Source: a virus
Reading direction: 5' to 3' (one strand)
IMG/VR virus record: IMGVR_UViG_3300006919_000010
Location: 1 to 43,350 of that record
Length of the DNA: 43,350 bases
Made by a program: the position numbers and the translations under genes. The notes beneath the pieces were generated by a model. It ran no database searches, was not told the origin of the DNA, and worked only from the letters and a program-made list of their open reading frames with translations. Positions 1 to 43,350 of the stretch are shown one piece after another. Every line of letters begins with the position of its first letter. The stretch's first letter is position 1.

Positions 1-123
1 CTCGCTAGACTTCGAATATGACTCAGGATACGGCATTCAGGAAATTTATGGTACAATATGGTTCGAAGACAAAACATGGGCCACCAGAGAAGAATATGAC
101 GGCTCAGAATGGTGGGAATACCA
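1..123. repeat. terminal direct repeat, left copy (123 bp)
   Basis: The first 123 bases are identical to the last 123 bases (43228-43350). The repeat lies inside a coding frame that continues across the join. This is what an assembler leaves on a circular or circularly permuted contig, and also what a phage with short direct terminal repeats would show. Sequence alone cannot separate the two. The position inside a gene rather than between genes favours the assembly overlap. Confidence 0.95.
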
Positions 124-711: not shown

Positions 712-1071
712 ATGCCAAGAAAAAATAATACTAGTAAAACAACTACACGCAAGCCAGCAGCTAAGAAGCCAGCAGCTAAGAAACCAGCGGCTAAAAAGCC
801 ACCTGCTAAAAAGCCAGCAGCAGCAGCTAAAAAGCCACCTGCCAAGGGTAATAAAATACTAATCCGACATGGTTTATCACGAAGCAAAGAAGTGATTGCA
901 CCTGAAGGATCAACTATCGAAATGCTTCTCAATGACCCAGATTTAAGGGCTATCCTTGGTTATGGCGAAAACATCGAAGCTAAAAGTGAAGGAACTATCC
1001 TGTCTAAAAGCTCAAACCTAGCAGGAGTCAAAACAATCGACATTGTTACAAAGGCAAACACTAAAAACTAA
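712..1071 (+). CDS. ubiquitin-like (beta-grasp) protein with histone-H1-like tail
   Basis: A 119-residue protein in two parts. Residues 9-46 are a Lys/Ala/Pro tail built of repeated AAKKP and PAKKP units, like histone H1 tails, likely disordered and able to bind nucleic acid. Residues 47-115 look like a ThiS/MoaD or prokaryotic-ubiquitin beta-grasp domain: ILIRHG strand, a turn, EVIAPEGSTIEMLL (strand then helix), a central LGYGENIEAK stretch, then SSNLAGVKTIDIV. It is placed just before E2-like (1161) and E1-like (2027) genes, and a JAMM protein lies at 3554, which supports a ubiquitin-like role. The C-terminus is KANTKN, with no diglycine; the last glycine is residue 105. A strong terminator follows at once, so this product could be made in excess over the enzymes. 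The fold is inferred from pattern only. Confidence 0.55.
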   Translation: MPRKNNTSKTTTRKPAAKKPAAKKPAAKKPPAKKPAAAAKKPPAKGNKILIRHGLSRSKEVIAPEGSTIEMLLNDPDLRAILGYGENIEAKSEGTILSKSSNLAGVKTIDIVTKANTKN

Positions 1072-1096
1072 CCTGATAAAGGCACATAACCTGATT

Positions 1097-1138
1097 AAGG
1101 CACACACGCATATTATTTGCGTGTGTGCCTTTTTTTTT
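1097..1138 (+). terminator. strong intrinsic terminator after the ubiquitin-like gene
   Basis: AAGGCACACACGCA (1097-1110) pairs perfectly with TGCGTGTGTGCCTT (1118-1131) around a 7-base loop, and the T tract runs to 1138. It lies between the ubiquitin-like gene and the E2-like gene start at 1161. Part of the polymerase must read through for the downstream genes to be expressed, unless another promoter exists in the roughly 20 bases left, which is unlikely. Confidence 0.93.
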
Positions 1139-1160
1139 AACAAATAATCACCAATCAACT

Positions 1161-1856
1161 ATGAGAACAGACGATACAACAATACTAATAGAGGGAGACA
1201 AAGTCTACTCACAAAGAGTTACTAAGGAATTACTAAATGTAAGTAATAAATTCATTCAAGAATCTATAAACTTCCCAGTAACAATGCATGGAATAGTACC
1301 GCTTACAAGTCTAATTATAAGTAAGGGAACATATTTCATTGCAAGAGAAATACATGAAATCGAATTAAAAACATTCTTTAAGATCATTGCAGACATTAAA
1401 GAAACATATATTACACCATCATACCACGATGGAGCGGAATCAGCATACTATGAGCAAATATATAAAATACCAGTTAATGTAAGAATGTACTTTGTTTCGC
1501 AATTTGATAAATTCGACTTAATACCCAAACAATACTACGCATTATGGGAAGTTGATGGAGAATATTATCCAGCAGCATTCCCAAATATATATGTTGATGG
1601 AACTGTATGCTTAGGTGCAACTCCAAATGTAACTAACTGCAACTCCTATCTTGAGGCATTTGATTTAGCATTTGATTGCTTCATCAATAACACATGGAAT
1701 CTTGATCTCTATGCAGATAGATGTAAGTTTATAAAATTCAGAGAAAATTCATCTGGAACTTGGAATCAATTACATATAGGAACTAGCGAATTTACATCAG
1801 TAACAAAAATAATATCAACAGACTCAGTAAGGATCATAGGAAATGGACTTAGTTAA
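1161..1856 (+). CDS. E2-like (Prok-E2_D / PRTRC protein B-like) conjugating protein
   Basis: A 231-residue protein from the ATG at 1161. A GTG at 1125 in the same frame lies inside the terminator stem and is rejected. The C-terminal half carries the pattern known from PRTRC system protein B and related prokaryotic E2 families: ALWEVDGEYYPAAFPNIYVD followed by GTVCLG, with Cys150 as the candidate thioester cysteine, then a helix (SYLEAFDLAFDCFINNTWN) where the family has a WE..FF.S.FTH-like stretch. The N-terminal region (residues 1-100) is the usual beta-rich lead-in. In E2 enzymes the cysteine accepts the ubiquitin-like protein from E1 and passes it to a target amine. The gene lies between a ubiquitin-like gene and an E1-like gene, which fits. 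The leader has no Shine-Dalgarno. Assignment rests on motif and context. Confidence 0.7.
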   Translation: MRTDDTTILIEGDKVYSQRVTKELLNVSNKFIQESINFPVTMHGIVPLTSLIISKGTYFIAREIHEIELKTFFKIIADIKETYITPSYHDGAESAYYEQIYKIPVNVRMYFVSQFDKFDLIPKQYYALWEVDGEYYPAAFPNIYVDGTVCLGATPNVTNCNSYLEAFDLAFDCFINNTWNLDLYADRCKFIKFRENSSGTWNQLHIGTSEFTSVTKIISTDSVRIIGNGLS

Positions 1857-2034
1857 TAAAATACGTCTTAAATCAAGAGAAGCTTACCTAAGATTAAAAG
1901 AAAAAGAAATAGAGGTATTAAATCATCTATTAAAAGAAGAAATAATAAGAGAAATAAAAACACTTAAAACTAAACAACAATCAGAGATTGCTGATAAATG
2001 CTTAGAAATACTAGAAATAATAAACAATGAATAG
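1843..2034 (+). CDS. small coiled-coil protein between E2 and E1 genes
   Basis: A 63-residue, highly charged, fully helical protein (LKEKEIEVLNHLLKEEIIRE) with a heptad-like leucine/isoleucine pattern. It overlaps the end of the E2-like gene by 14 bases and the start of the E1-like gene by 8 bases, so all three are probably translated together. The family is unknown. The location suggests an adaptor or subunit of the conjugation machinery, but that is inference from position only. It ends with TAG, a stop rarely used in this genome. Confidence 0.6.
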   Translation: MDLVNKIRLKSREAYLRLKEKEIEVLNHLLKEEIIREIKTLKTKQQSEIADKCLEILEIINNE

Positions 2035-2701
2035 ATTAAATATATTGATAATTGGTGCAGGAGGGACTGCATCATACTTCCTGCCAGCAATCTCAAAGTA
2101 CCAAGGTCAAGATATAAGAATAACCATCATGGATGGAGATAAGCTAGAAGAACGCAATCTTGATAGACAATTATTCAGTGATATATCAATAGGAAAATAC
2201 AAAGCTCAAGAGTTAGCAAGAGTTTACTCACCAAGAGGAACAAATAATATAAGATATATTAATGAATATCTTACGCCAAACACACTTGATTATATCTCAA
2301 GCAAATATGACTGCATATTCTCATTTGTAGATAATAATAATGCAGTTAAATTAGCATATGATCAAGCATGCCACTTAAAAATCCCATTCATAATGGCAGC
2401 AAATGAGATGTTTGACGCTAGTGCTGACATTGTGCTACCAGAATGGCGAGGAACAAATCTATGTCTATATGAACGCTATCCAGATGTAATGACACCAAGT
2501 GCATCTACAGGAATTAACTGCACAGGTAGCCAAGCAGCAAGATTCCCTCAATTAGCAATAGCTAACAATACTGGAGCAGCATTAGCACAGCATCTATTCT
2601 ATACATGGATCATTTGCGAATTAAGCAATGAAGGAAAAAAAGTTGTGCCATATAGCATTAAAAGAACATTAAGTAAATTCGAGACATTAAGTATATCATG
2701 A
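2027..2701 (+). CDS. ThiF/E1-like adenylating enzyme (ubiquitin-like activating)
   Basis: A 224-residue single-domain ThiF/MoeB/E1 superfamily protein. Motifs in order: Rossmann ATP loop GAGGTASYF (residues 10-18); MDGDKLEERNLDRQLF (35-50) with Asp36/Asp38, Asn44, Arg47 and Gln48, the classical D..D.VE..NL.RQ signature; IGKYKA (55-60) with the conserved lysines; FVDN (100-103) with the Mg-binding Asp102; and Cys165 in NCTGSQAARFPQ, the likely catalytic cysteine, where PRTRC ThiF proteins have PSC. Such enzymes adenylate the C-terminus of a ubiquitin-like protein and take it as a thioester. The length is like stand-alone PRTRC or Bil E1 proteins, with no second E1 domain. It overlaps the next gene by ATGA at 2698. 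Confidence 0.88.
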   Translation: MNRLNILIIGAGGTASYFLPAISKYQGQDIRITIMDGDKLEERNLDRQLFSDISIGKYKAQELARVYSPRGTNNIRYINEYLTPNTLDYISSKYDCIFSFVDNNNAVKLAYDQACHLKIPFIMAANEMFDASADIVLPEWRGTNLCLYERYPDVMTPSASTGINCTGSQAARFPQLAIANNTGAALAQHLFYTWIICELSNEGKKVVPYSIKRTLSKFETLSIS

Positions 2702-3552
2702 ACATAACTGATCTTAGAGACCTAATTCATAGTCAAGTACATAAGTATATATCACATCAGAATTGTACAAAATGGAATATCGCAAATAGAGGAGTAGTAG
2801 TACCAATACTAAGTGATTATGGTAAAGAAGTCTACCCTAATTACAAGCTATTAGCAATACCAGATGCTAATTATGAACCAGATGACCAATGTTACTCACT
2901 AATAGTTAATCCTCAATGGTTCTATATGAATGTTAGATTAATTAACGCCTGGCTTGCTGCACCTGAGTCAACAATAACCAAGCATACCATATTGAAAGCA
3001 TTTGGCATTCATATTGATATTAATACTATTGATAGTTTTATAGATGATAAGAATAAATTTAATATTCAACCACTTATGGATGTTATTGAAATATTTAAAA
3101 AAGATATATTTCAACATACCAGAGACAGACAATATCAAAAAATTAACCTCAATGACCCATATAATGAACCAAAAATAACTATCACGTCCACACGAACACA
3201 AGCAAACGCAGGTAGAAATAATCAAATAAACTTATATGGTTCAACAATCACAATAACAAAAATATGGGAAGTAGACTACTCAATAGATCAACTATACCTA
3301 ACAAGTGATGAGAGGCAAGAATTAGAAGAAGCTGTAAATACACATGGTCCATCATCTCAGCTTGATAACCATATAGATAACCTAATAAAAGAAATAATAA
3401 ACAATTATGGTTTTGATTACTTTCAATCCTATGCATCAGATCTCGACCTGACAAATGAAGAACTAATGGAAGAAGAAATATCTAATATTATCATTGACAC
3501 CGATGATGATATATATGAACAACTAGGAATTAACACAGACGACGATTATTAA
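2698..3552 (+). CDS. unknown protein of the conjugation cassette
   Basis: A 284-residue protein, start overlapping the E1 stop (ATGA). I do not recognise the family. The N-terminal part (residues 1-100) is mixed alpha/beta with conserved-looking Trp and Pro (NPQWFYMNVRLINAWLAAPE); the middle has a strand-rich segment with many Thr and Ile (EPKITITSTRTQANAG); the C-terminal 80 residues are very acidic, ending in DTDDDIYEQLGINTDDDY. It lies between the E1-like and JAMM genes and keeps the same spacing, so it is probably a functional member of the cassette: a target, target-recruiting factor or regulator. No E2, RING or protease motif could be seen. Confidence 0.65.
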   Translation: MNITDLRDLIHSQVHKYISHQNCTKWNIANRGVVVPILSDYGKEVYPNYKLLAIPDANYEPDDQCYSLIVNPQWFYMNVRLINAWLAAPESTITKHTILKAFGIHIDINTIDSFIDDKNKFNIQPLMDVIEIFKKDIFQHTRDRQYQKINLNDPYNEPKITITSTRTQANAGRNNQINLYGSTITITKIWEVDYSIDQLYLTSDERQELEEAVNTHGPSSQLDNHIDNLIKEIINNYGFDYFQSYASDLDLTNEELMEEEISNIIIDTDDDIYEQLGINTDDDY

Positions 3553-3553
3553 A

Positions 3554-4699
3554 ATGAATATTCAGCAACTAATTAAAGACGGAAAAATATACTCAAAAAC
3601 AAGCAATCAATTCTTTGATACATATCAAGAAGAAAAAGTACCAAAAGCAGATAATATACCATTTGATTGGAAAGGAGGCTTAATTCCCTTTGATACATAT
3701 CAAGAAATTGTGAATTTCTTCTTATGGACATATGAATTATGGAAAGGAGAAAGCCAAGTAAGACTATGGTATAATACTGAAACTCAAGAATGGGCAACAT
3801 ATCCAATGCCTCAATTAATAACTAAAGGCTCTATGGCAACAACTGATAGTTATTGCGAAAAAATATCTAAATTATTCCCACCACCCTGGATTGATCTTGG
3901 TACTGGGCATCATCATTGTAATGCTAATGCTTTTGCAAGTGCTCAAGATATTAACAACGAACAGAATCAAGATGGATTTCATTTCACAATCGGAAATCTA
4001 AATCAAAATAAACTTGACCTTCATGCTCGTTTCAGTTGGTCTGGACAGCTTTTCCCTTGCCATGTTTCTGACTTCGTAGCAGCCCCAGAATGGCTTCATT
4101 CAGCTCCAGACAATACTTACTACCAAATTCTCGACATAATGCTCAGAACACCGCCAGAATGCCCAGATTTTCCAAAAGAATGGAAACAACAGGTAACAGA
4201 AAAAATTACAAAACCTGATCATAGTCATCATATTCATCATCCTTATCAAGGGTTATATCAAGGTTACAACTGGAGAGATTGTATAAACAACAAAAGTATC
4301 ATAAACGAAGAAGAAGATGTCTTAGAATCAAATGATATTGCTATGGAAATTTCTGACATTGCTTACACAGTAAGTGAAGCAATTATTGATAATCCATATG
4401 ATATCTTAGAAGCATTCAATGAATCAAAGCCAAATAATAGACAATCAATATATATTAAAGATGTTGAATCAATGATAGAAGCAGAAATTGCATATTCACA
4501 AATTAAAATAAGAAAAAAAGATGCACTTAAAGAAACCTTAGATATGTTAAGAGCTAAAATTAATAAAGATGAAAAGATCATACAAGATACAAATAACCTT
4601 GAAGAACTTAAATTGATGACTGGTGCTAGCATGCCAACAATAAAATCAATCAACTATGAGATATATGAAAACGGTATTAGTATCGAAGATCTAATATGA
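3554..4699 (+). CDS. JAMM/MPN+ metallo-isopeptidase-like protein (PRTRC protein A-like)
   Basis: A 381-residue protein. Residues 119-132 read HHHCNANAFASAQD, an exact HxH-x7-SxxD JAMM zinc signature (His119, His121, Ser129, Asp132), with Cys122 where most families have Pro. Around it the layout matches PRTRC protein A: strands with Trp before (RLWYNTETQEW, containing Glu79 as a possible catalytic Glu), then PPPWIDLGTG, the motif, an acidic patch DINNE, and strands FHFTIGNL and LDLHARFSW. JAMM enzymes cut isopeptide or C-terminal peptide bonds of ubiquitin-like proteins. The C-terminal part (about 270-381) is charged and helical with no known domain. It follows the 284-residue gene by one base and overlaps the nuclease gene by ATGA. 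The motif is clear; the substrate is inferred from the E1/E2/ubiquitin-like neighbours. Confidence 0.78.
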   Translation: MNIQQLIKDGKIYSKTSNQFFDTYQEEKVPKADNIPFDWKGGLIPFDTYQEIVNFFLWTYELWKGESQVRLWYNTETQEWATYPMPQLITKGSMATTDSYCEKISKLFPPPWIDLGTGHHHCNANAFASAQDINNEQNQDGFHFTIGNLNQNKLDLHARFSWSGQLFPCHVSDFVAAPEWLHSAPDNTYYQILDIMLRTPPECPDFPKEWKQQVTEKITKPDHSHHIHHPYQGLYQGYNWRDCINNKSIINEEEDVLESNDIAMEISDIAYTVSEAIIDNPYDILEAFNESKPNNRQSIYIKDVESMIEAEIAYSQIKIRKKDALKETLDMLRAKINKDEKIIQDTNNLEELKLMTGASMPTIKSINYEIYENGISIEDLI

Positions 4700-11730: not shown

Positions 11731-11993
11731 ACAAAAAAATTGATTACCTAACTAAACCAATAGGCGAACCACAAGAGCGTCACGATACGCACGTTAAAAA
11801 ATCAAGAGTAGAAAAATATGACAGAAAAAACCTGTATGTATCTAAATGCGGAATGTACAAGTTTAATAGCTTATCACAATTAGTCAATTACGGATGGAAA
11901 TACTTTTGGTCAAATAGACCACAAGATCCGCCATCAGACATACTGCAAACCAATGTAATGAATATTAGCGACCCAGATGAAAACCATTATTAA
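11727..11993 (+). CDS. last gene of the early operon, unknown small protein
   Basis: An 88-residue protein. The N-terminus is basic (HVKKSRVEKYDRKN), then CGMYKFNSLSQLVNYGWKYFW, an aromatic-rich stretch, and an acidic C-terminus. The family is not recognised. Its TAA at 11991-11993 overlaps the TAA of the opposing 2742-residue gene (TTAA at 11990-11993), so the two operons meet with no spacer or terminator. Confidence 0.6.
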   Translation: MNKKIDYLTKPIGEPQERHDTHVKKSRVEKYDRKNLYVSKCGMYKFNSLSQLVNYGWKYFWSNRPQDPPSDILQTNVMNISDPDENHY

Positions 11994-14900
11994 TCAAAAG
12001 GATTAATGCTCTCATCTGCTTGCAACCATACCCCTGAACCAAGCTTTTCTAAAGCATTATCACGGCCCTCTATCCACTCTCCATCATCAAAAAGTGAAAT
12101 AGAAGGCTGAAAAACAAAACGGTCAAAAGCAGCCCTACCTAAAAAATGGCTTTCAAATGGCATAAATGCTCTACCAGCCTGAATAGTCTTAGAACCTAAC
12201 GTCCCTGGACTCTCAGCATCAAGGATATTAAATACCTTATCTGCCTTAGCCTTAGGCACTCCTAAATGATAGTTAGCTATCCTATTAAAAAAAGGCTCAT
12301 CGCTATCCCATTCGCCAGATAACATGGAAGTGTAAATTCCACCAAACCCTGAGCCAGCAATAGCACCCCAAGCAGCAGACTTGCCCCACAAGCGAGGCTC
12401 TCTATTACTAAGCATATCTTTAATAAGATTAAGTAAATATGCAAGCATTACCATATAGCCCATAAAGTAAGCTGTACGTAATTGACTCTGAGGATTGCCA
12501 CTAATTAAGTCGGCCATATTTTTACCAAAGTGCTTCTTAATAAAAGCCATAGGATATTGATGATAGAGAGCCATATTACTAAGAATCGCTCTCTGCCAAG
12601 TACCTGACTGAAAACCAAGAGTAGTAAGAGTACGCTCTAAATAACCAGGCATAAGAACACCCTTATTCATTTCAGTATTAAGCATCTTCTGATATTTCGT
12701 ATCTACCTCATCAGCAAGCTGCTTGTACAATGAATCAGTGACCTCTGTGTAGCCCTTACTTATTGCGAGAACCTTTAAGGCTTCAGGATTAACATCTTCA
12801 ATTCTTGAAATAATATCAAAGTCTTCAGAAAAGCCTTCTTCGCCCCAATTTATTTTCTTGGAGTTAGACCTAATAACATCCCATTCATATTGATTAATAC
12901 CATATTCTGCGAATGTATCACGAGTACCTTGAGGCAATGAATCAAAATCCATATCCTTAGCACTACCAATACCAGTCATAAAAATCGAAGTAAAAACAGT
13001 CCTACCAAGATCCATAACATGATTCATACCAGTAACATCAAATACGAACTTATTCCAAGTCCTCATCTTATTCATATTTGATCCAGAAGATCCAGTAGCC
13101 CTAAGCATATTAGTAAGAGTCAACGCAGCAGTAACACCAATCCGCTTAATCTCATGCTTACGCTCAGGATGTTTTTTTATAGAATCAATAATAGTACTCC
13201 ATACTGGCTTATGGATGAGATCTCCAATGGAATCATCTAGCGTCTTGCGAATTGTTCCAAAGTCACTAAGAGAAGTAACAGCTGCCATGCCGATAGTTGA
13301 CGGAATAAAAACACCGAACTTCATAAAGTCTTCAATAGCTGTTATTGTATTATTGGCAGAAAGGTCATTAAGACCAAGTGCCTCACGAGCAAAATCCTCA
13401 GGGCCACGCTTAGCGACATTATAAAAGAACCAGTGATAAGGATAGAGCCAGTCCTTGTGCTTACCAAAGTCTTCCTTAACCTTAGGAAATATGTCACTAA
13501 AGAAATCCATAGCCTGCTCCATAGGAGAGTTAAACTCAGAGGACTTGCCAGTATGAATCTCGATGGCTAAGTTATTAGCAAGTGTACGCCTATCCTCGAT
13601 AAAGCCAAGGTTAGGATCATAAGAGCCAAACTCTTCCATAACCTTCATACGATCCATTGGCGTGTTATAGAAGATAGTAGTCTGTAGCTCTGAGCGGTTA
13701 GAGCGATAGAAGTCACCACTGCCAACATCACCATCTTCCTTATTAGGCTTCAAGTAACCAGATCTATCAAGAGTCATATCGTGAACCTTGTCGTAATGAT
13801 TAGAGAAGAATAAATATTCAGCAAACTTAGCAAGCGTTAGACCTCCTTTATCCTTGTAATATCTTTCTAAATTTGGATCATGACGAAAGTTAGCTTCTGC
13901 TAACTTCTCAGGAACAATTTCGTCATGGGGTATAATAACAGTCTGTTCACCATTCTTATATCTCTCAATAAAAGCTGCTCGATCATTACCAAAAATTCTC
14001 TCTCTATTAAGATACATCTGAAGGCCAAGCCACTTAATTGCATAAATAGAGCTATTGTAAGCAGAAGTATTAGAATTATATTCCCACTGGTAGCCATCTG
14101 AGTAATAAGTATCCATCTCAAATGTCTTAGCATGATTGATGTCAACCTCATTCAGCATATAGTCAATAAAGTCCTTACGACCATCATCAACTGTCTGCAT
14201 CTTGTTGTTTAACCTATTAAGCAGCTCACTCTCTTTCCTGCGAAAAAAGATGTCTTTTATATTGCCAAGGTCAGACTTAATGGAATCACCTATCGAGTGA
14301 TCAGAAATAAGCTCAGCATTCTTACTCTTGCCGCCATTTTGCATGAAGATAGCATTCCAAAGCATAGGCACACCACGCATGGTATTGACCTTGATCTCAC
14401 CTAATATACTATTATACTCATTGATCTTCTTGAGATTAGCATTGTACAAAATCTTGCCGATAGCAACAGCATTCTTATCAAGATAGACATCTTGATCACG
14501 CCACTTAAAGGTATGGTCAGCACCAAGTGTTTCACCTTGTTCAAGCAGCATGTTTGCCATATTGTATTTGGACTGAAATTCCCTATCGGCCTTCATGTAA
14601 AGCTCAGTAAGACCAGCCTTATCAAGCTCACCATAGAAATCACCAAGGAATTTATGGATATAAGTGTCTCTAGTATTCTCTATAGATTCTAGGGTCTTAT
14701 GAAAAGCTACCTCATGGTTACCATCGTTGTCCCTAATCAGCTTATCAAAGTCGTTGTACTTCTTGATCCTGTGAAGCAATGATCTAAGCTCGGTAAAGTA
14801 ACCAGATGGCGTTTCAAGTTTATTATGCTGTTCTGGGGTAAGAACATTAATATAACGCTTATCTGTTTGACCTTCAGCACCCTTATTATTTCTCCAGTAA

Positions 14901-17900
14901 TTAAGAGCCTCTATTTGTTTTATTATATCTTTAATTTTACCCCTAAAGACTTGAGGTATGAGAACGTCATCGTAATGTGCGTTAATAGTACGACCAACCT
15001 CGACCTCCTTCTCGTTCATGCCTTGGAGCTTATTATAAACCCAATTCATGATCTGATTTTCAGCAAACTTATGACCTCGGTTCTTGGCGAAAACCATAGC
15101 AATAAACTCCTGGGCAATATTCATTCGGCTTAATAGCCCTTCAATATCATCCATGCCGTCAAACCTATCACGAAAGTCAGAAGGAACCTTGTCCTTAAAA
15201 TTAGACCAATCATAATAATCAAAGAGTTCCTTATAAGATTCTGGGTCAAGTCTCTTTAGATCATTAAGAAGAGCCTCAAAAGCATGTTTTCTCTTTTCAG
15301 CAGTAAACTCACCAATACTATCCCTAATCCTGTACTCAACCATAGCGTGAGTCACCTCTTCTCTTATAGCCAGGGCAACAGTATTGCTGCTCTGACTATC
15401 AATGAAGCTTCGACTGATCTTAATGCTATTATCTGATGGGGAGTATATGGCAGACTTAAGAGAGTCATCAAAAACGAGCTTAACACCCATAGACTTGATC
15501 AGGGTCATTAAGCCCTGCATGACATCATTGAACTTATTCTTAGTCGCTGGATCAGGCTTAGGCTCGTCACCCTTGCCTCCGACTTCTTCATTGACCTTAG
15601 CTAAGATAGCATCAATAGGCCCACCATCATCGAAAGTAAAGATTGGAGTTCTTAGCCACTTGATACCTAGCTCGTCTTCTAGTTCGCCACGAAGAACAGC
15701 GACATCGTTATGCAGTTGGTCAAGGTGAGTATCAAGATTTACATAACCAAGGCGATTATCGGATTGAACATTAGGCCTAGTCAATAGTGGATCAGCAGAG
15801 TTATCATAAGCCTCCATAAATGAAGTATTGATCTTATCTCCATTATTAAACATAACATTCTCATTATCAATATGAGAGATATCCCTATGATTGCCTGTAA
15901 GTTGATTCTCTGTATTAGTAAGAATCTTTTCCTCGCCTTCAACCTTCATAGAGCCAAACTCAGACTCAAGCACATTAGCAATATGTCTATGCATATCATC
16001 AAAGTTCTGCTGCGGAGTGCGATCCTTAAGATTTTCATACTCTATACCCTTACCAAAGATAGCTTTAGAGCTACCAGCCTGAATACCTATAGCATCAGGG
16101 TTAATTTCTTGACTCTGCTTAGCCCAAGCAAGTATATCCTGCATATACTTAGCAGCAGCATTAATGTTAAGCTGTTTGCCTACCTCTGGAGATTTAAGCA
16201 GACTAGAATCACCTGCCATGTAAGGCTTGCTTACATTATTGCGGCTAAGGATGTCATGCAATCTACCCCTACCTGACACATGATCACCAGGAAGAATAAA
16301 AAGATTATGACCTTCCTCAAAACCAGCAGCAAGAGCTGCCTTCTTAGCGGCTTCACCCTCGAAAGATAAGCCTTTATTATCTGTTTTACTAAAGATAATA
16401 ACAGAGTCAGCTTGACGCATATTAAGTGAATGCTGACCGACCCTATCCCAGAAAGCTGTCTGACCGCTTGTACGCTCCTTGTTCAATTCAGCCAGCCCAG
16501 ACTTCGCATGACCAGTCAAAGCCGCTCCACCTTCCTTAATTTTGCCGTCCTGAACGGGCGATAACTTCAATATTCGAGTCCTTGCCCGATATGGGAACCG
16601 TTTCTTCAAGTCTTCGCCAGTTATACCGAGCTTTTCGGCCCAAGAATCAACAACCTTAGGGTTCCATTGATACCTAACGCTTATTGAGCCGTTATCATGC
16701 TGCTCATATAAGAAGCCCTGGGGCTTGTCGCCACCTTCAGGATTATCAAGACGTGATTGTGCTGCCTCAAGATTAAGATGTTCAACAGTCTCTAAGAACT
16801 TATCAGGATCAATAATAGGCTTGAGGTTTACAGCATCAATCAAATCCTCGATAAGCTTCATAGTCTGACCAACTTCATGCTCATTAATGTTATCAGCAAT
16901 ATTCTGAAGGAAACTTGCAACCTGTTTAGGCGTATTTATGTCATCCTTAAGAAACTGACGAATAACGCCCTGAACTCCCTCAAAGTATCTTGATCTATGA
17001 TACTTATCCTTCTTATCGCCAAGGTGATCAATAAGCGTATCAAGTTGACCTTTCATATTAGTCATGCGGTCAAGCGGAGCAAGTTCGGCCTGTATCTTGG
17101 CGGCAGCATCCTTAGAGGTAGCACTAATACGAACAGGAACCTTAAGGCTATTCCAGTAAAGATCCTTACCATCTTTGGTATTCATACCAAAGAGATGGCG
17201 AATATAAGCCTCATATTGAGCAAACTTATCACTAGCCAGTTTTTGCTGACGGATAAGACGCTCTAACTCTGAGCGTCTGGCGATTGTGTCAAGGGAATCT
17301 GAAGGATCTTTAACGGGCTTTTCACCAGCAGCTATCCTTCTTAATCTGTTACGATTCTTAGCCTGTTGTCGTCTCTTAAGCTCCTTTAATCTTCTGGGCT
17401 TATCCATCTTCTCAAGTTCAAGAAGCTCAGCAATCTCCTTATTGGCAGCATCAGTAACCCTAAGAAGCTCAGCCTCAACTAGCATCCTATGTTTCTTAAG
17501 ATCATTAGAATCAGGATGAATACCGCTATCAAGCATCTCACGAAGAGTTGGCATGCCTTCTATTCTGTAGTCGGCTATTGCTTTAGGCACATAACCAACC
17601 TCTATGCCTTTCTCAATAAGATCTGGTGCTTCTTTCTGAGTGCCATCATAAAAATCCTTAGTACGCTTAGAGTCATACTCAGTACGCTTAGGGTCATACT
17701 TACGCTCGTAAGCGAAATCATCCCTTTGTTCATAAGGAGACTTAGGGGAATTAGAGTGTGCGACATTAACATCCCTGCCGAAATTATCGTAGATATGAAT
17801 ACCACTATCGAGAGATTCAACTTCCTCGATCTTAAAAACTCCGTGATCACTACTGGTCTGATCAATTAAGAGACCAAGTTCATTGCGAACCTGTTCAGTC

Positions 17901-20218
17901 TTCTGGTTAGAGAGAACAATAATATCACCAGCTTTTAGGCCACGGCCATCGACCCCTGGAAGCGAACCACTACGCTCAATGATATGCTCATATTTACCAG
18001 CCTTAAGATCAGCGATATTATGAGAAGGGAAATTCCTAAACTGTCCGTTATTGTCTAGCTGTATATGCCTGAAACCAGTAGTAGCAACTACACGATCAAT
18101 ACCAGCAGGAATGCCCTGTCTATTGGCTTTTAAGGCTTGACCCCCAATGCTGTTCCTAGCAAAATTAGAAAGATTGAAATTATCAGCAAGGAGTATAGTA
18201 GAAATATTATAGGGTTTTTCATGGTATATATTAGGGCCATTATGAATGATACCCTTATCTTGCTTAAATTTGCCACTAAACACATCACTAGCCAACTGAG
18301 TGATCTGAGCATCATCAAGGCCAAGGCTATAAAAATAACGCATAGCCTCTGGAGTAAGCTTAAAGGTAAAGAAATTATCAGGCAGCTTAGTTACTACATT
18401 AGCTCCCCAATTCTGACCAGTAGGATCAGTGCCAAGATTATAGATACCATTATTAATTTGTGCATCACGAAAAAGAATAGGCTGACCAAGAGCATTAAAT
18501 AAAAAAGGAGAACCATCAGGGCCATAGGTTCCAAGTGTATCTGTATAAACCCTATACTCTGGCGGAAATGGATTGTACTTAGTATAGCGACCATCCTCGA
18601 CCTGCGTGCGTCCACTAAGAACAGACTCAGAGATAATAGAGAGAGCAATATCATGAACTGCCTGCTGCTGATCTGCGTCAAGCTTTGATTCCTTGCCAAA
18701 GAGTGGCTTAGAATCTGGGCCAATGTCACCACGAGCAATAAGATCTACTGCATAAGAATAGGCAGCTGGATAAAAATTCTTAAAATCATCAAGAGAATAA
18801 CCAGAATCAATAGTAAGCTTAAGTTGCTTGCTGATGGTGTCAGTCAAAGCGTAAGTAAGCATCTTGGTCTTTTTCTCATCAAGAAAAGACTTGGCCTTAA
18901 TAAGATCAGCTTCGGCTGGATTAGCAGCCATACGCTCAAGTTCAGCTTGCATCTTCTGCATACGCTCCTCTGGAGCAAGAATAGTAAAGTCTTCAGCTGC
19001 TGCCTTAAGAAGGTTAAATACAATATTATCAGGACTACCACCCTCAGTGAAAAAAGACATGAAGAATGAACGCTTCTCAGCCATACCAGCAGCATCATTA
19101 TTCATATCCATTATGCCATACTCAGTGTCAATAGCTTTAAGAACATTATGGATAGTATGAAAATCTCCACCATGCTTCTTGAGCCAGTCCTTCATAATGT
19201 CGTTCACCTCACTGACTGGAACCTCATCCAGACTGCGACCCTCAGCATCTATCTGAGAGAAAAACTGATGAGTAAAACTCTCATCAAAGCGATAACGCTT
19301 AGGGCCACCAATAAACATACCGCCAGCAGTACTAGCACTCTGAGCTAAACCAGTAGCAAAGTCTGCCATATGAACAATACCACCAACATTAGAACCAAGC
19401 ATACCATAAGTAATAGCATTACCTAATCTTGGTGCATAGATATTAGCCATATGCAAGCCACCACCAAACCCAACAGAAGCAACGAGTGAATAAAAAGATT
19501 CTTGACCAGTATATGGAAGGTCAAGGTAAGAGCGACCAGCGACAATAATAGGCTCACTCATAGCATAGCCAACAGCACCTAGCTTGATGCCGTCTTTAAT
19601 ATTAGCCATAATGGTCTGTTTCTTAGCTAGATCATCAAAATATTTATCGAAACGACTCCTGATATTCTTATTAGCCGTAGCACTAATACCCTGTCTCCTA
19701 AGAAATTCAGCAATAGCCTCTTGACCGCTTATAGTTGATTGAGCCATACCTGGAGCAGCCTTCTGCACTCCCTTTAATGCCCTAACTCGTCGCATGGCCG
19801 CACTCTCCCTAATGATAGGAATCATATTGATAGGATCACTGAGCGTACCAGTCAGTGAAGCAGCCATAAGGCCAAGGCTAGGAAGCCCAGTGATCTTTTC
19901 AGAAGAGTCAGCTAATACACGTTTATTAAAGTCACGATTACTCTGAATAGTGTAAAGGGCAGCAGCCTGACCCTCCGTCATATTCTCATCCCACTGATGA
20001 TTCCTGATACCTAAGGCATCAAACTTAGAGCGAGTGATCTTGTTCTTATGGCTGGCAAAGCTCTTCTTAATGTTATGATCATTAAGGCCTTGCATAAGCA
20101 AGCCAATAGAATTATAACCCTCAAAAGAGTCAGTGTAAGCATGACCAAGAGCACCAACATAATCTTGGGCTAGATCAGGGTTGGTATAAGGATTCGAGTA
20201 ATATTCTGGTAATGGCAT
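11990..20218 (-). CDS. giant internal virion (ejection) protein, gp16-position
   Basis: A 2742-residue protein, the last of three genes downstream of the tail tube, where T7-like phages encode the internal virion proteins gp14, gp15 and gp16; gp16 is the largest and is ejected to span the host envelope. It is about twice the length of T7 gp16. Seen features: long helical charged segments around residues 880-960; a Rossmann-like stretch near 1266 (ADSVIIFSKT...NLFILPGD) that recalls SLOG/YspA nucleotide-binding folds; a gluzincin-like EEVTHA near 1620 with Glu where HExxH has its first His; and hydrophobic helices near 2590 (AYFMGYMVMLAYLLNLIKDM) that could insert in membranes. A lytic transglycosylase motif was not identified. 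Domain calls other than position are tentative. Confidence 0.75.
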   Translation of the reverse strand: MPLPEYYSNPYTNPDLAQDYVGALGHAYTDSFEGYNSIGLLMQGLNDHNIKKSFASHKNKITRSKFDALGIRNHQWDENMTEGQAAALYTIQSNRDFNKRVLADSSEKITGLPSLGLMAASLTGTLSDPINMIPIIRESAAMRRVRALKGVQKAAPGMAQSTISGQEAIAEFLRRQGISATANKNIRSRFDKYFDDLAKKQTIMANIKDGIKLGAVGYAMSEPIIVAGRSYLDLPYTGQESFYSLVASVGFGGGLHMANIYAPRLGNAITYGMLGSNVGGIVHMADFATGLAQSASTAGGMFIGGPKRYRFDESFTHQFFSQIDAEGRSLDEVPVSEVNDIMKDWLKKHGGDFHTIHNVLKAIDTEYGIMDMNNDAAGMAEKRSFFMSFFTEGGSPDNIVFNLLKAAAEDFTILAPEERMQKMQAELERMAANPAEADLIKAKSFLDEKKTKMLTYALTDTISKQLKLTIDSGYSLDDFKNFYPAAYSYAVDLIARGDIGPDSKPLFGKESKLDADQQQAVHDIALSIISESVLSGRTQVEDGRYTKYNPFPPEYRVYTDTLGTYGPDGSPFLFNALGQPILFRDAQINNGIYNLGTDPTGQNWGANVVTKLPDNFFTFKLTPEAMRYFYSLGLDDAQITQLASDVFSGKFKQDKGIIHNGPNIYHEKPYNISTILLADNFNLSNFARNSIGGQALKANRQGIPAGIDRVVATTGFRHIQLDNNGQFRNFPSHNIADLKAGKYEHIIERSGSLPGVDGRGLKAGDIIVLSNQKTEQVRNELGLLIDQTSSDHGVFKIEEVESLDSGIHIYDNFGRDVNVAHSNSPKSPYEQRDDFAYERKYDPKRTEYDSKRTKDFYDGTQKEAPDLIEKGIEVGYVPKAIADYRIEGMPTLREMLDSGIHPDSNDLKKHRMLVEAELLRVTDAANKEIAELLELEKMDKPRRLKELKRRQQAKNRNRLRRIAAGEKPVKDPSDSLDTIARRSELERLIRQQKLASDKFAQYEAYIRHLFGMNTKDGKDLYWNSLKVPVRISATSKDAAAKIQAELAPLDRMTNMKGQLDTLIDHLGDKKDKYHRSRYFEGVQGVIRQFLKDDINTPKQVASFLQNIADNINEHEVGQTMKLIEDLIDAVNLKPIIDPDKFLETVEHLNLEAAQSRLDNPEGGDKPQGFLYEQHDNGSISVRYQWNPKVVDSWAEKLGITGEDLKKRFPYRARTRILKLSPVQDGKIKEGGAALTGHAKSGLAELNKERTSGQTAFWDRVGQHSLNMRQADSVIIFSKTDNKGLSFEGEAAKKAALAAGFEEGHNLFILPGDHVSGRGRLHDILSRNNVSKPYMAGDSSLLKSPEVGKQLNINAAAKYMQDILAWAKQSQEINPDAIGIQAGSSKAIFGKGIEYENLKDRTPQQNFDDMHRHIANVLESEFGSMKVEGEEKILTNTENQLTGNHRDISHIDNENVMFNNGDKINTSFMEAYDNSADPLLTRPNVQSDNRLGYVNLDTHLDQLHNDVAVLRGELEDELGIKWLRTPIFTFDDGGPIDAILAKVNEEVGGKGDEPKPDPATKNKFNDVMQGLMTLIKSMGVKLVFDDSLKSAIYSPSDNSIKISRSFIDSQSSNTVALAIREEVTHAMVEYRIRDSIGEFTAEKRKHAFEALLNDLKRLDPESYKELFDYYDWSNFKDKVPSDFRDRFDGMDDIEGLLSRMNIAQEFIAMVFAKNRGHKFAENQIMNWVYNKLQGMNEKEVEVGRTINAHYDDVLIPQVFRGKIKDIIKQIEALNYWRNNKGAEGQTDKRYINVLTPEQHNKLETPSGYFTELRSLLHRIKKYNDFDKLIRDNDGNHEVAFHKTLESIENTRDTYIHKFLGDFYGELDKAGLTELYMKADREFQSKYNMANMLLEQGETLGADHTFKWRDQDVYLDKNAVAIGKILYNANLKKINEYNSILGEIKVNTMRGVPMLWNAIFMQNGGKSKNAELISDHSIGDSIKSDLGNIKDIFFRRKESELLNRLNNKMQTVDDGRKDFIDYMLNEVDINHAKTFEMDTYYSDGYQWEYNSNTSAYNSSIYAIKWLGLQMYLNRERIFGNDRAAFIERYKNGEQTVIIPHDEIVPEKLAEANFRHDPNLERYYKDKGGLTLAKFAEYLFFSNHYDKVHDMTLDRSGYLKPNKEDGDVGSGDFYRSNRSELQTTIFYNTPMDRMKVMEEFGSYDPNLGFIEDRRTLANNLAIEIHTGKSSEFNSPMEQAMDFFSDIFPKVKEDFGKHKDWLYPYHWFFYNVAKRGPEDFAREALGLNDLSANNTITAIEDFMKFGVFIPSTIGMAAVTSLSDFGTIRKTLDDSIGDLIHKPVWSTIIDSIKKHPERKHEIKRIGVTAALTLTNMLRATGSSGSNMNKMRTWNKFVFDVTGMNHVMDLGRTVFTSIFMTGIGSAKDMDFDSLPQGTRDTFAEYGINQYEWDVIRSNSKKINWGEEGFSEDFDIISRIEDVNPEALKVLAISKGYTEVTDSLYKQLADEVDTKYQKMLNTEMNKGVLMPGYLERTLTTLGFQSGTWQRAILSNMALYHQYPMAFIKKHFGKNMADLISGNPQSQLRTAYFMGYMVMLAYLLNLIKDMLSNREPRLWGKSAAWGAIAGSGFGGIYTSMLSGEWDSDEPFFNRIANYHLGVPKAKADKVFNILDAESPGTLGSKTIQAGRAFMPFESHFLGRAAFDRFVFQPSISLFDDGEWIEGRDNALEKLGSGVWLQADESINPFD

Positions 20219-43049: not shown

Positions 43050-43350
43050 AAAACGCTAAACAAGAAATTGAAGAATTAATGTTGCAAGTATCATCACTAA
43101 CACAAGTAAGATGTGCAACAATCACACACTATAAGCCATACTTAAATGATGCTAAGCCCAAACCTCAGCCAAAAACCTTCAATCTGCCAATTCTCTACAC
43201 AGCAAAAGAAGCAGAAGATTTTCTCGACTCGCTAGACTTCGAATATGACTCAGGATACGGCATTCAGGAAATTTATGGTACAATATGGTTCGAAGACAAA
43301 ACATGGGCCACCAGAGAAGAATATGACGGCTCAGAATGGTGGGAATACCA
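43046..43350 (+). CDS. 5' part of a gene that crosses the genome join
   Basis: This frame starts at ATG 43046 (ATGA overlap with the membrane peptide) and is open to the window end; it continues at 124-166 once the 123-base redundancy is removed, giving 115 residues. Predicted to start with a helix (KNAKQEIEELMLQVSSLTQV), then a basic/Pro linker (DAKPKPQPKTF), then a mixed domain with the Trp-rich end described at position 1. No family was recognised. Confidence 0.75.
   Translation, partial: MKNAKQEIEELMLQVSSLTQVRCATITHYKPYLNDAKPKPQPKTFNLPILYTAKEAEDFLDSLDFEYDSGYGIQEIYGTIWFEDKTWATREEYDGSEWWEY
43228..43350. repeat. terminal direct repeat, right copy (123 bp)
   Basis: Identical to bases 1-123; see the left copy. 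The stretch lies inside the gene that crosses the join. Confidence 0.95.

What the first reader, a model, noticed from the sequence alone, without database searches (positions are those of the whole stretch)
712..4699. Phage-encoded ubiquitin-like conjugation and removal cassette
Four linked early genes look like a full pathway: beta-grasp protein (712), E2-like protein with VCLG cysteine (1161), E1/ThiF-like enzyme with ATP loop, D..D..NL.RQ signature and candidate Cys165 (2027), and JAMM protein with exact HxH-x7-SxxD (3554). Seen: motifs and tight overlaps. Known: PRTRC and Bil systems in bacteria use this set; Bil modifies phage tail fibres as defence. Inferred: the phage uses its own pathway to mark or protect host or virion proteins, or to counter a host pathway. 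Full E1-E2-JAMM sets on a small podovirus are unusual.
Basis: partly seen in the sequence, partly recalled or inferred. Interest (0 to 1): 0.95.

Follow-up and report, generated by a model that had tools for sequence, protein, structure and literature searches.

The report
Phage-owned ubiquitin-like tagging system
A small virus of bacteria carries its own complete ubiquitin-style kit for attaching a small protein tag to other proteins and removing it, and dozens of related marine phages share the kit with a tag that ends in alanine instead of the usual glycine; what it tags is unknown.

Summary
Window 712-4699 encodes a ubiquitin-like protein (Ubl), an E2, an E1 and a JAMM peptidase, plus two unassigned proteins (63 and 284 aa). 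The E1 is a clear ThiF-family enzyme (Pfam 3e-15). The Ubl model matches ubiquitin folds. E2 and JAMM are related by profile to Prok-E2_D and Prok-JAB through close relatives. All catalytic residues are present. The cassette is not a curiosity of one phage: scans of viral contigs found 70 records of the same E1 clade, plus three in bacterial bins (74 loci with the window). All 47 loci with enough flank hold Ubl, E2, E1 and JAMM in order. Close pairs are under purifying selection. The nearest known kind is the PRTRC/'6d' operon of plasmids; CBASS, Bil and sulphur-carrier systems fit worse. What differs: phage ownership, no ParB, and a modifier that has lost the terminal glycine. It ends in -KA in 51 of 54 distinct Ubls. 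The window's own ends in -KN, which may not be conjugatable. In most loci checked the Ubl is cut off from the enzyme genes by a transcription terminator, suggesting modifier excess. Targets are unknown; the position next to replication genes is the only hint. PDB fold search did not confirm the E2 fold.

The parts
712..1071 (+). Ubl modifier, 119 aa: Lys/Ala/Pro-rich N-terminal tail (residues 1-46) plus 73-aa beta-grasp core ending KANTKN (no terminal Gly)
   Evidence: top PDB hits are Ubl/ubiquitin domains, probability 1.00, TM to target mostly 0.6-0.79; 24-35% identity to the Ubls of 13 related phages
1097..1140 (+). Intrinsic terminator between Ubl and E2 (14-bp stem followed by a T-run)
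   Evidence: -26.2 kcal/mol, z -7.5; hairpin plus T-run at the same place in most relatives, with different sequence
1161..1856 (+). E2-like conjugating enzyme, 231 aa; PN-x7-C150-x-G (FPNIYVDGTVCLG)
   Evidence: N142, C150, G152, D182 invariant in A7; Prok-E2_D hits 5 of 17 family members, best 5e-8; profile match to plasmid E2s, E 2e-7; PDB fold search negative
1843..2034 (+). 63-aa protein; relatives have a 63-130 aa ORF in the same place (group A with GRKRGAILRYI motif); function unknown
   Evidence: no family match
2027..2701 (+). E1/ThiF-like activating enzyme, 224 aa; G10xGG, D36, D38, N44, R47, Q48, K59, D102, candidate thioester Cys165
   Evidence: Pfam ThiF 3.4e-15, PRTRC_ThiF 4e-9; named residues invariant or nearly so in 74 clade members
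2698..3552 (+). 284-aa protein between E1 and JAMM; present in group B phages only; function unknown
   Evidence: no match to any library or to E2/PRTRC profiles
3554..4699 (+). JAMM/Prok-JAB peptidase, 381 aa; E66, H119xH121-x7-S129xxD132; about 190-aa C-terminal extension
   Evidence: Motif invariant in A9 and in 72 of 73 clade JAMMs; Prok-JAB hits 9 of 19 members; profile match to plasmid and large-phage JAMMs, 9e-11 and 9e-18

Best explanation
This is a complete, reversible ubiquitin-like protein-conjugation pathway owned by the phage, related to the PRTRC-type ('6d') E1/E2/Ubl/JAB operons of plasmids and large phages. Proposed steps: E1 adenylates the C-terminus of the Ubl and loads it on Cys165; it passes to Cys150 of E2; E2 attaches it to target amines; the JAMM trims Ubl precursors and removes the tag. 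Shown by sequence: homology of E1, E2, Ubl and JAMM, intact catalytic residues, conserved gene order, purifying selection, and a terminator that probably leaves Ubl in excess over the enzymes. Inferred: actual conjugation, and the target. My best guess at the target (about 30%) is proteins of the early replication stage, phage or host, because the cassette abuts the replication genes and its plasmid relatives sit with ParB or DNA polymerase III genes. In this clade the chemistry must accept a non-glycine end, usually alanine.
For: E1: Pfam ThiF 3e-15, PRTRC_ThiF 4e-9. E2 family: Prok-E2_D 5e-8 in relatives; hhalign E 2e-7 to plasmid E2s. JAMM: Prok-JAB 1e-4 in relatives; hhalign 9e-11 and 9e-18. 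Ubl: AlphaFold model matches Ubl domains. Full set in 47 of 47 evaluable loci of 74 (20 E1 clusters at 70% identity). Catalytic residues conserved. dN/dS 0.03-0.30 in the close pairs L021/L022, L021/L027 and L031/L032. E1s of these cassettes form one clade, 100/99 support. Terminator between Ubl and E2. Plasmid relatives with ParB or DNA polymerase III genes. Relatives in Bacillus phage KLEB27-3 and in L064-L067 encode tandem Ubl precursors that would need a processing peptidase. GenBank labels the E1 and E2 homologues of Salmonella phage Arash 'structural protein', a label given after mass spectrometry of purified particles (PMC10585845).
Against: No biochemistry. The E2 model (pLDDT 74) finds no E2 in PDB; its best structural matches are uncharacterised phage proteins and the phage ME3 E2 candidate. 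The window's Ubl ends in Asn; in CBASS, C-terminal Gly or Ala work but Ser, Val, Arg and Trp do not (PMC10097602), so this particular Ubl may not be conjugated as it stands. No direct evidence for a target. The Ubl profile did not match PRTRC protein C by hhalign (only two-sequence alignments were available).
Confidence: 0.8

Rival explanations
1. Sulphur-carrier system: E1 and Ubl make a thiocarboxylate for thiolation of a base or metabolite, with E2-like and JAMM proteins as accessories.
For: E1 also scores with ThiF/MoeB models; ThiS/MoaD are beta-grasp proteins.
Against: No rhodanese, desulphurase or other sulphur-transfer gene among the window ORFs scanned; conserved E2 with PN-x7-C; E1 Cys positions 96, 115, 146, 165, 197 give no CxxC pairs; modifier ends in Ala or Asn, not GG.
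Confidence: 0.06
2. Weapon against other genetic elements: the phage tags proteins of competing phages or prophages, as Bil tags tail fibres, to block superinfection.
For: Bil uses the same four activities against phage assembly (PMC12687455, citing the primary papers); E2 is the fastest-evolving of the four in close pairs, as expected of a target-recognition part.
Against: Cassette sits in the early region beside replication genes; no Bil or complete CBASS model matches; no direct evidence.
Confidence: 0.2
3. Counter-defence: the JAMM, E1 or Ubl interfere with host Bil/CBASS/Bub conjugation.
For: Those host systems use related E1/E2/JAMM enzymes.
Against: A mere inhibitor would not need a complete own set of Ubl, E1 and E2 kept together in 47 of 47 loci; the Ubl C-terminus is unlike host ones.
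Confidence: 0.15
4. In this particular phage the pathway is decaying: the Ubl lost its conjugatable end (Asn) while the rest persists.
For: Window and L036 are the clade Ubls that end -KN and -KQN; 51 of 54 end -KA with or without a short tail.
Against: All enzymes are intact with full motifs; L036, another phage, has a similar end; a short cleavable tail is an alternative.
Confidence: 0.15

Closest known systems
PRTRC system / operon type 6d of Iyer et al. 2006 (PMC1779556), plasmid-borne
   Same: Separate genes for small Ubl, E2 (Prok-E2_D), ThiF-like E1 and JAB; E1 scores with PRTRC_ThiF
   Different: On a phage; no ParB found; Ubl without terminal Gly; extra 63-aa and 284-aa proteins not matching known PRTRC proteins; scores far below the PRTRC curated cut-offs
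E1/E2/JAMM sets of large phages (Salmonella Arash gp246-248, Bacillus KLEB27-3 gp194-196 with tetra-Ubl gp199, Acinetobacter ME3)
   Same: Phage-owned, same activities
   Different: 180-235 kb phages; where a Ubl was found (Arash, KLEB27-3 and IMG/VR kin) it ends in GTKG/GVKG, sometimes in tandem; gene order E2-JAMM-E1; outside the window's E1 clade
Bil (BilABCD) anti-phage system
   Same: Ubl, E1, E2 and JAMM peptidase
   Different: BilA has two Ubl domains and a reactive C-terminal Gly; BilD has inactive and active adenylation domains plus a Cys domain (PMC11354881); window E1 is a single 224-aa domain and no Bil match was found
CBASS type II Cap2/Cap3
   Same: E1, E2 and JAB activities; C-terminal Ala accepted on the modifier (PMC10097602)
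   Different: Cap2 is an E1-E2 fusion and the modifier is the cGAS-like enzyme, absent here; only weak adenylation-domain similarity

Membership tests
PRTRC / Iyer type 6d operon | ThiF-family E1 of PRTRC type | tested here: met
   PRTRC_ThiF E 4e-9, but 36 bits against a cut-off of 145: related, below curated membership
PRTRC / Iyer type 6d operon | E2 of Prok-E2_D type | tested here: met
   Relatives hit Prok-E2_D (5 of 17, best 5e-8); window itself has no hit but aligns with invariant PN-x7-C and by profile to plasmid E2s
PRTRC / Iyer type 6d operon | JAB peptidase (protein A) | tested here: met
   Window PRTRC_A only 0.05; relatives Prok-JAB 1e-4; motif invariant; profile match
PRTRC / Iyer type 6d operon | Small Ubl with highly conserved C-terminal glycine | tested here: not met
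   Ubl present, but ends -KN; clade ends -KA
PRTRC / Iyer type 6d operon | ParB-related gene in the cassette | tested here: not met
   No ParB match among the cassette and neighbouring ORFs scanned with Pfam and NCBIfam
PRTRC / Iyer type 6d operon | Largely helical third protein of the operon | tested here: inconclusive
   284-aa protein has no match to the large third protein of gamma plasmids by profile
Bil | BilA-D composition: tandem-Ubl BilA, two-domain BilD E1 with Cys domain | tested here: not met
   Single Ubl core and single 224-aa E1; no matching PADLOC model; it is not known here whether that release holds Bil models
CBASS Cap2/Cap3 | E1-E2 fusion with CD-NTase and Cap3 | tested here: not met
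   Separate E1 and E2; no CD-NTase found in the cassette; only partial E1-E2 matches
ThiS/ThiF sulphur carrier | Ubl with C-terminal GG | tested here: not met
   Ends KANTKN
Ubiquitin-like conjugation (any) | Covalent Ubl-substrate conjugates | not testable with these tools
   Needs biochemistry or proteomics

The most novel reading that the evidence does not exclude
A clade of small phages runs its own orthogonal, reversible ubiquitin-like modification during infection with a glycine-free modifier (C-terminal Ala, in two phages Asn), used to control phage or host proteins rather than for bacterial defence.
Probability: 0.5. Interest if true: 0.9.

Novelty: new variant of a known kind. Interest (0 to 1): 0.78.

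Why it matters
Known bacterial ubiquitin-like pathways are mostly discussed as defence against phages; here phages own the entire pathway, conserve it and keep it under selection. It would make the unexplained PRTRC systems testable in a small genetic system, tell whether an E1-E2 cascade can use a modifier without glycine, and warn proteomics that the remnant on lysine would not be Gly-Gly by sequence. By residue masses from general knowledge, trypsin would leave Ala (+71.04) in most of the clade and Asn (+114.04, isobaric with GlyGly) for the window's Ubl.

Tried and rejected
Single-protein scans of viral contigs with E1, JAMM and primase found nothing; only a four-sequence E1 alignment reached the relatives, while a 12-sequence alignment was too divergent. 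E2 as a PDB-recognisable UBC fold: not obtained. 284-aa protein as a second E2 or as the large third protein of gamma PRTRC plasmids: no profile match. 63-aa protein: no match. Membership in Bil or CBASS: rejected. Reading the window's Ubl as cut after 'TKA' four residues earlier (TKA|NTKN): possible, but it would shorten the tail relative to aligned sisters, so not adopted. Literature: no open-access paper found that describes complete phage-encoded E1/E2/Ubl/JAMM sets; key bacterial Ubl papers were not held, so priority is not settled.

Full report
What was checked. The window is one whole virus record of 43,350 bases. Its first and last 123 bases are identical, so it is probably a complete genome of about 43.2 kb. 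It has a T7-like/HTVC010P-like podovirus gene set: head-tail connector/portal phrog_332 at 4e-116, major head protein, AEP-TOTE primase, UvrD and SNF2 helicases. The nearest GenBank genome by portal (MW202510, 38%) shows no cassette in its annotation.

The genes. E1 (2027-2701) is a clear ThiF-family enzyme (Pfam 3.4e-15; PRTRC_ThiF 4.2e-9). It carries the residues matching MoeB's adenylation site (Gly41, Arg73, Lys86 and Asp130 of MoeB are named in PMC12355090) as G10/G12, R47, K59 and D102, plus Cys165. In 74 clade members the adenylation residues are invariant and Cys165 is Cys in 73. E2 (1161-1856) has no direct family hit, but relatives hit Prok-E2_D (5 of 17, best 5.1e-8), the family profile matches plasmid E2s (2.2e-7), and the motif Asn, 7-8 residues, Cys-x-Gly is invariant across the 17 aligned members. 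A PDB fold search with a medium-quality model found nothing, so the UBC fold itself is not shown. JAMM (3554-4699) has Glu66 and HxH-x7-SxxD, with E, H, H, S and D invariant in 19 relatives; relatives hit Prok-JAB (9 of 19). The Ubl (712-1071) model is a ubiquitin-like beta-grasp with many ubiquitin and Ubl hits, behind a 46-residue Lys/Ala/Pro-rich tail not seen in the 13 aligned relatives. Two more genes, 63 and 284 aa, sit inside the operon and have no assigned function.

How widespread. Single-protein scans found no relatives, but an alignment of distant E1s did, and a clade alignment extended this. Seventy-four loci, the window among them, belong to the E1 clade: 20 clusters at 70% E1 identity. 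All 47 loci with enough flank hold Ubl, E2, E1 and JAMM. The profiles were trained on up to 19 of these loci; the rest are independent. Of the first 22 records, 10 carry the podovirus portal (one of them only marginally) and 10 a relative of the window's primase. Of 53 loci with at least 5.5 kb downstream, 37 have homologues of the window's replication-region genes. In the group-A phages JAMM follows E1 directly; in group B (window, L017, L033-L038) a 201-440 aa protein lies between. Three clade members come from bacterial bins (L071, L072, L074), probably phage contigs or prophages.

Selection. In the close pairs L021/L022, L021/L027 and L031/L032, dN/dS is 0.03-0.12 for E1, 0.10-0.16 for Ubl, 0.10-0.21 for JAMM and 0.23-0.30 for E2. 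More distant pairs have dS near saturation. The system is maintained, and E2 changes fastest in these pairs.

The modifier's end. Ubls of PRTRC plasmids and of large phages end KTNG or GTKG/GVKG. In the window's clade the end is -KA: 40 of 54 distinct Ubls stop exactly there, 11 have 1-15 further residues, and three differ (window -NTKN, L036 -NTKQN, L038 a fusion). E1s of the glycine-free cassettes form a single clade against the glycine set (100/99), so this looks like one evolutionary change. In CBASS, cGAS with a C-terminal Gly or Ala is conjugated, while Ser, Val, Arg and Trp are not (PMC10097602). Alanine is therefore plausible; asparagine is untested and is the weakest point for this particular phage.

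Expression. Between Ubl and E2 lies a strong intrinsic terminator (-26.2 kcal/mol, z -7.5). Twelve of the 17 loci I inspected have a hairpin followed by a T-run at this place, with different sequences (the count is by eye; L036 has a hairpin without a T-run, and L020, L021, L022 and L027 lack it). This suggests that the modifier is made in excess of the enzymes; it is inferred, not measured.

Relation to known systems. The architecture is that of operon type 6d of Iyer et al. (PMC1779556), which I equate with the PRTRC families of protein databases. Two of its defining features were tested and not met (terminal glycine, ParB), so I call it PRTRC-like and not a PRTRC member. PADLOC gave only partial CBASS E1-E2 matches on E1. 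Large phages already carry glycine-type versions. In Salmonella phage Arash the E1 and E2 homologues are labelled 'structural protein'. The Arash paper gave that label to proteins found by mass spectrometry in sucrose-gradient-purified particles (PMC10585845). The gene numbering of its table and of GenBank does not match fully, and its authors note that abundant enzymes may be carried over. Bacillus phage KLEB27-3 encodes four head-to-tail Ubls, 57 aa each, nearly identical in protein but only 79-84% identical in DNA, like a polyubiquitin gene.

Verdict. A reversible ubiquitin-like conjugation pathway is the best reading (0.8). The target is a guess; replication-stage proteins lead, with rival-phage attack and counter-defence as alternatives. 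Shown: homology, motifs, synteny, constraint. Inferred: catalysis, conjugation, target, Ubl excess.

Noticed in passing
L069:6931-7638 (minus strand; Bacillus phage KLEB27-3 gp199) and L064-L067:334-1413: Polyubiquitin-like phage genes: 4 and 6 tandem Ubls, each ending KAGVKG or KAGTKG, with short C-terminal tails; in KLEB27-3 the protein repeats are nearly identical but the DNA is only 79-84% identical.
   Followed up: partly
L046:2091-2471: Two tandem Ubls, each ending KRTGTKG, then ND, upstream of E2, JAMM and E1 genes.
   Followed up: no
L016:107-307 (Salmonella phage Arash): A 66-aa Ubl ORF ending RRTGTKG is not annotated; the annotated gp251c overlaps it in another frame.
   Followed up: partly
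L015:1730-4840 (Acinetobacter phage ME3): The JAMM gene appears split within its active-site motif (MDIH ... then the rest) by about 2 kb that includes a tRNA call and small ORFs; possibly an intron or homing insertion.
   Followed up: no
L039, L053, L061, L062, L068: Sister loci with two E1-like genes, in four of them next to a JAMM close to this family; a 131-aa ORF ending IGG follows the second E1 in L039.
   Followed up: no
window 1-123 and 43228-43350: Exact 123-base direct terminal repeat: the record is probably a complete genome.
   Followed up: yes
window 1843-2034: Small ORF between E2 and E1; in marine relatives a 108-119 aa protein with a conserved GRKRGAILRYI motif sits there.
   Followed up: partly
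window 11990-20218 (minus strand): A 2742-aa protein, only its C-terminus matching virion structural families.
   Followed up: no
L038:840-1556: Ubl-like domain ending KKAGRKS fused to a further 160 aa or so of unknown nature, far upstream of the E1.
   Followed up: no
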